32,557 nt of DNA from Candidatus Lloydbacteria bacterium CG22_combo_CG10-13_8_21_14_all_47_15. GTDB taxonomy: Bacteria > Patescibacteriota > Minisyncoccia > Phycocordibacterales > 21-14-all-47-15. The translations under genes and the position numbers were made by a program. The stretch covers positions 1 to 32,557 of the forward strand of contig PCTL01000019.1 of assembly GCA_002771515.1 (NCBI GenBank), given 5' to 3'. Positions 4,964 through 19,301 of this stretch are shown in pieces. Each line of letters begins with the position of its first letter. Positions within the stretch are counted from its first letter, which is position 1. The notes below the pieces were generated by a model that was given only the letters and a program-made list of their open reading frames with translations, had not been told where the DNA came from and ran no database searches.

Positions 4964-5035
4964 GGTCCAGTAGCCAAGTGGTAAGGCAAGGGTCTGCAAA
5001 ACCCTTATACGGGGGTTCGATTCCCCCCTGGACCT
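4964..5035 (+). tRNA. tRNA-Cys (GCA)
   Basis: Full cloverleaf: acceptor GGTCCAG (4964-4970) pairs with CTGGACC (5028-5034); anticodon stem AGGGT/ACCCT; loop CTGCAAA with anticodon GCA at 4996-4998; T-arm GGGGG TTCGATT CCCCC; discriminator T. CCA is not encoded. It lies five bases after rbfA. Confidence 0.96.
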
Positions 5036-5095
5036 CAAGGGTACGGGAGCAAAGCAACTGCTTGCTTTGCGTGGGGAATCGAAAGCCGGAGCAAT
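5036..5095 (+). repeat. Post-tRNA spacer element, copy A, with an antisense T-arm
   Basis: This spacer begins after tRNA-Cys. GGGGAATCGAA at 5073-5083 is an exact reverse complement of the tRNA-Cys T-arm segment at 5016-5026. The part starting GAGCAAAGCAACTGCTT resembles copy C after tRNA-Leu(UAA), and the first part resembles copy B. Function is unknown; it may be the remnant of tRNA-gene duplication. Confidence 0.6.
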
Positions 5096-12540: not shown

Positions 12541-12580
12541 AGTATATATCTGCTCTGTACGAGCATCTGCTCAAGTCCTT

Positions 12581-12693
12581 TGTGCCGGCGCCGACCTACT
12601 CTTGCCCTGTCGGACTACCATCGGCGCTGATTAGCTTAACTTCCGTGTTCGGAATGAGAACGGGTGTATCCCAATCGCCAAAGCACCGGCACA
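12581..12693 (-). rRNA. rrf: 5S ribosomal RNA
   Basis: About 113 bases. The ends pair as helix I (5' TGTGCCGG... with ...CCGGCACA 3'). The conserved core CCGAACACGGAAGTTAAG is seen on the minus strand, followed by CGCCGATGGTAGT. It lies downstream of the 23S gene and a tRNA-like element. Confidence 0.95.
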
Positions 12694-12725
12694 AAATACT
12701 CGAGCTCTCCACGCTCTTTATCCTT

Positions 12726-12802
12726 TGGTAGAGTCGGGGGGCATTGCACCCCCCAACCTTTCCGCTTGTGGCGGAACGCTTTCCTCCTTAAGCTACGACT
12801 CT
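12726..12802 (-). tRNA. tRNA-like element with encoded CCA in the 23S-5S spacer (degenerate or non-standard tRNA)
   Basis: On the minus strand the cloverleaf is complete: acceptor AGAGTCG (12802-12796) pairs with CGACTCT; T8 A9; D-stem GCTT/AAGC with GG in the loop; anticodon stem TTCCG/CGGAA; variable region AGGTTG; T-stem GGGGG/CCCCC; discriminator A; then CCA (12728-12726). All four stems pair perfectly. However, the anticodon loop CCACAAG lacks U33 (nominal anticodon ACA), and the T-loop TGCAATG has G where pseudouridine-55 is normal. The four ordinary tRNA genes in this window do not encode CCA. It could be a rare tRNA, a tRNA mimic used for rRNA processing, or a decayed tRNA; the intact pairing argues against simple decay. 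Confidence 0.6.
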
Positions 12803-12891: not shown

Positions 12892-15958
<3,067 letters not shown>

Positions 15959-15999
15959 TTACGGAAATATGGAATACATATATTATTTTTCGGTTACCC

Positions 16000-19169: not shown

Positions 19170-19266
19170 CGCCATGTGTCGCTAATAAAAAAATAAACGG
19201 CCAAAAGCCGCGCGTACTTCGACCTCGGCAGGGCTTATGGTATACCGCCTGCTGTCTACGGCTTGT
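19170..19266 (-). promoter_or_regulatory. Ribosomal protein L10 leader
   Basis: The minus strand carries the hallmark segments GTAGACAGCAGG (about 19261-19250) and CCCTGCCGAGG (about 19234-19224), which pair through GCAGG/CCTGC as in the known L10 leader that binds the L10-L12 complex for feedback control. Downstream, CGGC TTTTG GCCG followed by TTTATTTTTTT (19210-19187) may be an attenuator. The rest up to the ATG at 19104 is untranslated. Confidence 0.75.
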
Positions 19267-19272
19267 ATATAC

Positions 19273-19301
19273 TATATACCGCCAGAGCATCAAAAAGTCA
19301 A
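19273..19301 (-). promoter_or_regulatory. Promoter of rplJ-rplL
   Basis: On the minus strand TTGACT (19301-19296), a 17-base spacer, TATATA (19278-19273). The start would fall near 19266, right at the L10 leader, giving a leader of about 160 bases. Confidence 0.7.

What the first reader, a model, noticed from the sequence alone, without database searches (positions are those of the whole stretch)
12726..12802. CCA-tailed tRNA-like element between 23S and 5S
All cloverleaf stems pair perfectly and a discriminator A plus CCA follow, yet the anticodon loop lacks U33 and the T-loop lacks T55. Four normal tRNAs in the same window do not encode CCA. This mix suggests an RNA kept for its shape, perhaps as an RNase P / RNase Z cutting signal that frees 23S and 5S, rather than for decoding. 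It could instead be a rare tRNA with nominal anticodon ACA.
Basis: partly seen in the sequence, partly recalled or inferred. Interest (0 to 1): 0.82.

Follow-up and report, generated by a model that had tools for sequence, protein, structure and literature searches.

The report
Non-decoding tRNA-like element in rRNA spacer
Between the two large-subunit ribosomal RNA genes of a tiny-genome bacterium sits a perfectly folded tRNA look-alike that cannot read codons, and many related species carry similar tRNA-shaped elements with wrecked anticodon arms in the same place, which suggests they are kept for their shape (probably RNA processing) and not for translation.

Summary
Minus strand 12802-12726 is a full cloverleaf: 21 of 21 stem pairs Watson-Crick, then A+CCA, with C33 for U33 and G55 for U55. 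It sits between 23S and 5S in a 658-kb Patescibacteria genome (nearest named relatives: Lloydbacteria, Yonathbacteria). A covariance model built without it gives 47.9 bits, E 3e-13. Default ARAGORN and Rfam tRNA thresholds miss it. Decoding is unlikely: the 42 tRNAs found elsewhere in this genome all have U33, and a normal tRNA-Cys(GCA) exists. In the same order, 49 of 189 23S-5S spacers hold 67 sense-strand tRNA-like elements, against 1 of 48 in other Patescibacteria classes. About two thirds are non-decoding (wrong-size or large inserted anticodon loops, expanded D-loops) yet keep acceptor and T stems with strong compensatory change. This supports 'kept for its shape'. The specific 'cut signal that frees 23S and 5S' is plausible but unproven: conventional 23S and 5S flank stalks and RNase III are also present, most relatives lack an element, and no RNA data exist. 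Most likely it is a decoding-dead spacer tRNA retained as an RNase P-type, t-element-like module, a variant I found undescribed in the papers searched.

The parts
12726..12802 (-). tRNA-like element, whole cloverleaf plus encoded ACCA
   Evidence: sequence; fold; R1 model 47.9 bits; shuffles
12796..12802 (-). acceptor stem 5' strand AGAGTCG; predicted RNase P cut is just 5' of 12802
   Evidence: sequence; cut site inferred from tRNA rules
12778..12793 (-). D arm GCTT-AAGGAGGA-AAGC
   Evidence: sequence
12760..12776 (-). anticodon-like arm TTCCG-CCACAAG-CGGAA; C33 instead of U33; 6-bp stem with 5-nt loop possible
   Evidence: sequence; fold
12737..12753 (-). T arm GGGGG-TGCAATG-CCCCC; G55 instead of U55
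   Evidence: sequence
12730..12736 (-). acceptor stem 3' strand CGACTCT
   Evidence: sequence
12726..12729 (-). discriminator A73 and encoded CCA
   Evidence: sequence
12896..15954 (-). 23S rRNA gene
   Evidence: Rfam RF02541
12583..12690 (-). 5S rRNA gene
   Evidence: Rfam RF00001
12859..12895 (-). 23S 3' trailer strand of the leader/trailer stalk
   Evidence: RNAduplex -58.0 against shuffled mean -40.8, best of 200 shuffles -55.9; extent approximate
15955..15998 (-). 23S 5' leader strand of the same stalk
   Evidence: extent approximate
12691..12704 (-). 5' flank strand of the 5S stalk (pairs with 12570-12582)
   Evidence: RNAduplex -18.7 kcal/mol
4964..5036 (+). normal tRNA-Cys(GCA), which makes an ACA tRNA-Cys unnecessary
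   Evidence: ARAGORN

Best explanation
The element is a tRNA-derived cloverleaf that can no longer decode. It is carried inside the 23S-5S precursor, between the 23S stalk and the 5S stalk, and is kept because the precursor gains from its tRNA shape, chiefly the acceptor/T-arm helix and the tRNA elbow. Most likely mechanism: RNase P recognises this helix and cuts just before A12802, which separates the 23S-side from the 5S-side precursor; the CCA-ended piece is then trimmed away from the 5S side. Shown: the structure, its position and strand, loss of decoding features, recurrence in relatives, and compensatory conservation of acceptor and T stems in non-decoding relatives. Inferred: co-transcription, RNase P cleavage, and benefit to rRNA maturation.
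For: Perfect 21/21 Watson-Crick stems although identity to any of the genome's own tRNAs is at most 68%, no better than a shuffled element and below the typical tRNA-to-tRNA value, so it is not a recent dead copy. All 42 ordinary tRNAs found in the genome have U33, as do 54 of 55 control tRNAs outside spacers. 67 sense-strand elements lie in 49 of 189 same-order spacers against 1 of 48 in other classes, Fisher p 1e-4. In 40 elements classed as non-decoding, acceptor+T pairs are 98.5% standard, 10 of 12 pairs show double changes, and no shuffle reaches the covariation score. In one clade with 23S ends 91-99% identical, interiors differ wildly (D-loop inserts L136/L169, a 66-nt anticodon-arm loop in L235, a 3- to 5-nt loop in L251) while acceptor and T stems covary. 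T-loop TTCRANT is kept in nearly all, which fits elbow or acceptor readers such as RNase P rather than the ribosome. RNase P RNA is present. CCA is encoded in 39 of 67 spacer elements against 17 of 55 other tRNAs, p 0.003, though elements are not independent.
Against: RNase III and conventional stalks around 23S and 5S could do the processing alone. About three quarters of relatives lack any element. In the Yonathbacteria clade the ACCA pairs inside a following hairpin (L251: ACCG/CGGT, compensated), so CCA there may be kept for another reason. The window element itself has no close ortholog and has lost U55. Some covariation predates loss of decoding, because elements derive from different tRNAs. 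About two thirds of CPR RNase P RNAs examined by Lui et al. lack the UGG motif that binds CCA (PMC8172020). No transcript data.
Confidence: 0.5

Rival explanations
1. Structural insulator: the cloverleaf is kept only as a compact, independently folding domain that keeps the 23S and 5S stalks from mispairing in a long spacer; it is not cut at a specific site.
For: It lies between two stalks. Mean cloverleaf pair probability in the full-spacer fold is 0.82. Element-bearing spacers are longer (median 388 against 113.5 nt).
Against: An insulator need not keep a tRNA T-loop, elbow and 7+5 bp acceptor/T geometry, yet these are kept in nearly all elements; many long spacers have no element.
Confidence: 0.17
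2. Neutral relic: tRNA genes land repeatedly in this spacer, lose decoding, and drift away; the window element is a relic that happens still to be paired.
For: Patchy distribution, varied tRNA origins, several elements that differ from a normal tRNA by a one-base anticodon-loop deletion, and tandem scars of tRNA 3' halves.
Against: The window element is saturated in sequence yet has 21/21 pairs; 98.5% paired cells with double changes among non-decoding elements; retention in all seven members studied of one clade despite rearranged interiors; all four spacers read from the window's nearest relatives (G000, G001, G002, L222) have an element.
Confidence: 0.22
3. A functional but unusual tRNA, nominal tRNA-Cys(ACA), or a charged non-decoding tRNA used outside the ribosome.
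For: Complete cloverleaf with A73 and CCA; relaxed ARAGORN labels it Cys(aca).
Against: No U33, no U55, A73 rather than the U73 expected for tRNA-Cys (established knowledge), normal tRNA-Cys(GCA) present, Rfam tRNA threshold not reached; relatives lack any usable anticodon.
Confidence: 0.06
4. Attachment site of mobile elements: the tRNA 3' half is an integration target and the elements mark past insertions.
For: Tandem partial copies of tRNA 3' halves in L084, L046/L069 and L199.
Against: I saw no integrase gene in the spacers examined by eye and no flanking duplicate noted at the window element; does not explain stem covariation.
Confidence: 0.05

Closest known systems
Spacer tRNAs of rRNA operons (e.g. 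tRNA-Ile/Ala of bacterial 16S-23S spacers)
   Same: tRNA fold, same strand, within the rRNA precursor, between the processing stalks
   Different: in the 23S-5S spacer; cannot decode; often with inserted or resized anticodon arms
t-elements of plant mitochondria (Forner et al. 2007, cited in PMC4368725)
   Same: tRNA-like structures without decoding function at transcript borders, proposed RNase P/Z substrates
   Different: bacterial rRNA spacer, RNA-based RNase P, cleavage not shown here; even in plants one t-element (cox1) was unaffected by RNase P knock-down (PMC4368725)
Mitochondrial tRNA punctuation
   Same: tRNA shape as the cutting signal between rRNA and other transcripts
   Different: there the tRNAs also decode
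Group I intron-bearing tRNAs of CPR (PMC8172020)
   Same: interrupted tRNA-like genes in CPR
   Different: inserts here are short (roughly 10-150 nt); the group I introns detected near them lie in 23S

Membership tests
decoding tRNA | cloverleaf with 7/4/5/5 stems | tested here: met
   21/21 pairs
decoding tRNA | U33 in a 7-nt anticodon loop | tested here: not met
   C33; 42/42 other tRNAs have U33
decoding tRNA | T-loop U54 U55 C56 R57 A58 | tested here: not met
   TGCAATG, G55
decoding tRNA | passes standard tRNA models (RF00005 gathering, ARAGORN default) | tested here: not met
   but own model R1 gives E 3e-13
decoding tRNA | aminoacylated and used in translation | not testable with these tools
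   no RNA data
rRNA-operon spacer tRNA | lies on the rRNA strand inside the spacer between processing stalks | tested here: met
t-element (tRNA-like processing signal) | tRNA-like fold without decoding capacity at an RNA border, conserved for structure | tested here: met
   (for relatives; structure only for the window copy)
t-element (tRNA-like processing signal) | cleaved by RNase P and/or RNase Z in vivo | not testable with these tools
   needs RNA
group I intron in tRNA | catalytic intron core within the tRNA | tested here: not met
   no intron inside the elements of 20 loci scanned; none in the window spacer
viral tRNA-like structure | Rfam TLS model above gathering | tested here: not met
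   Tymo TLS 10.5 bits against 40

The most novel reading that the evidence does not exclude
One order of Patescibacteria uses a rapidly turning-over set of decoding-dead tRNA shapes as RNase P-cut punctuation inside the 23S-5S rRNA precursor: a bacterial counterpart of mitochondrial t-elements, in which acceptor/T domains are conserved while anticodon and D domains are free to shrink, expand or vanish.
Probability: 0.4. Interest if true: 0.75.

Novelty: new variant of a known kind. Interest (0 to 1): 0.6.

Why it matters
If true, tRNA shape alone works as an rRNA-processing or folding module in bacteria, and these spacers are natural experiments on what RNase P (or another elbow reader) needs from a substrate. 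It also means tRNA annotation in CPR genomes contains genes that do not decode, and misses others such as this one that standard tools do not call.

Tried and rejected
Direct DNA search of 60 relatives found only chance-length matches, so orthologs had to be found by position. Missing RNase III as the reason for a substitute signal: rejected, RNase III is in 92 of 98 relatives and in this genome. Group I introns as the cause of the inserts: rejected. Viral tRNA-like structure: rejected. Recent copy of a host tRNA: rejected. CCA as a feature unique to the element in this genome: rejected, 16 of 42 other tRNAs encode it. The MFE of the whole 205-nt spacer is only mildly better than shuffles (z -1.6). 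The whole-genome first look with R1 did not list the window element although direct cmsearch does, so such whole-genome scans undercount.

Full report
What is there. On the minus strand, 23S (15954-12896) is followed by a 205-nt spacer and 5S (12690-12583). Positions 12802-12726 of the spacer read AGAGTCG TA GCTT-AAGGAGGA-AAGC G TTCCG-CCACAAG-CGGAA AGGTTG GGGGG-TGCAATG-CCCCC CGACTCT A CCA. No shuffle out of 1500 gave 21/21 pairs; MFE z is -3.9. A covariance model built only from tRNA-like elements of other species' spacers scores it 47.9 bits, E 3e-13. Default ARAGORN and Rfam miss it.

Where it comes from. The window is one of 34 contigs of a 658-kb genome. The closest named relatives by the neighbouring RodA-like protein are Lloydbacteria, Yonathbacteria, Nomurabacteria and Taylorbacteria, i.e. 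Parcubacteria/Paceibacterota of the Patescibacteria. The 16S gene is on another contig, in line with unlinked rRNA genes reported for CPR (PMC8172020). The 23S-5S-rodA order is kept in most of those loci that reach the rRNA.

Not a decoding tRNA. I recovered 42 ordinary tRNAs from this genome; all 42 have U33. A normal tRNA-Cys(GCA) is in the window. The element is no more similar to any of these tRNAs than a shuffled copy of itself is (best 68%), so it is not a recent dead copy: its sequence has turned over while every pair stayed intact. By counting tails, 16 of 42 tRNAs encode CCA, so encoded CCA is unremarkable here, although the four tRNAs in the window lack it.

The same site in relatives. 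I extracted 189 distinct 23S-5S spacers of the order. 49 carry 67 tRNA-like elements, all on the rRNA strand. In other classes of the phylum only 1 of 48 spacers does (L335; Fisher p 1e-4). By an automatic rule 17 elements look decoding-competent and 50 do not. The rule misfiles a few both ways: L199 and L058 look like real tRNAs, while L069 looks non-decoding although filed as competent. 'About two thirds non-decoding' is therefore the fair statement. Defects include 5-, 6- and 8-nt anticodon loops, non-U33 loops, 12- to 66-nt insertions in the anticodon arm (L084, L085, L205, L212, L235), and D-loop insertions (L088, L136, L169). No group I intron lies in these elements in the 20 loci scanned.

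Constraint on the acceptor/T domain. In 40 elements classed as non-decoding, the 12 acceptor+T pairs are standard in 98.5% of cells, 10 of 12 pairs show changes on both sides, and covariation is 0.92 against 0.20 in shuffles. Part of this is inherited from different parent tRNAs, so a within-clade test matters. In seven Yonathbacteria-type spacers (23S ends 91-99% identical) interiors are completely rearranged, yet 97.6% of acceptor+T cells pair and five pairs changed on both sides, reached by 1 of 500 shuffles. Seven sequences are few, and I set their alignment by hand. L101 and L207, with 99-100% identical rRNA ends, differ in acceptor sequence (partly by compensatory change) and in nearly everything between. 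T-loop TTCRANT is kept in nearly all elements; the window copy is an exception.

Processing context. A 23S leader/trailer stalk is predicted in the window (-58 kcal/mol against a shuffled mean of -41; best shuffle -55.9) and in 8 of 13 tested relatives at z below -3. 5S has its own flank stalk (-18.7). RNase III and RNase P RNA are encoded. So the element is not the only way to free 23S and 5S; it sits where spacer tRNAs sit in other rRNA operons. I therefore accept 'kept for shape', give RNase P cleavage about even odds, and regard 'needed to free 23S and 5S' as unproven.

Novelty. Literature searches for pseudo-tRNAs or tRNA-like elements in 23S-5S spacers, and for CPR, found no description; the library is open-access only. 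The nearest parallel is the plant mitochondrial t-element. I class this as a new variant of a known kind.

Noticed in passing
L101, L136, L169, L207, L235, L251, L241 (directly 3' of the element): A hairpin follows the acceptor stem and in most contains the encoded ACCA as its 5' strand (ACCATTTC...GAAATGGT); L251 has ACCG with compensating CGGT, so the hairpin rather than CCA may be conserved.
   Followed up: partly
L084, L046, L069, L199 spacers: Tandem or repeated partial copies of the tRNA 3' half (L084: a unit of about 147 bp repeated), which look like duplication or insertion scars.
   Followed up: no
L084, L046, L092, L095 spacers: A palindromic hairpin with ends like AAGACCTTTTGA...TCAAAAGGTGTAC recurs in different species, possibly a small mobile palindrome.
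   Followed up: no
L136 248-449, L251 3517-3716, L235 1930-2278, L207 3135-3461: Group I introns match at or inside the 23S genes of these relatives.
   Followed up: no
G000:C17 and G000:C31: 16S lies on a different contig from 23S-5S, so the rRNA genes are probably unlinked in this genome.
   Followed up: partly
G000:C10:1787-1861 (-): A weak extra match to the tRNA-like model (21 bits) that is not among the 42 Rfam tRNA hits; may be another odd tRNA.
   Followed up: no
window 19183-19279 (-): L10 leader (RF00557) ahead of the L10/L7-L12 ribosomal protein genes; ordinary.
   Followed up: no
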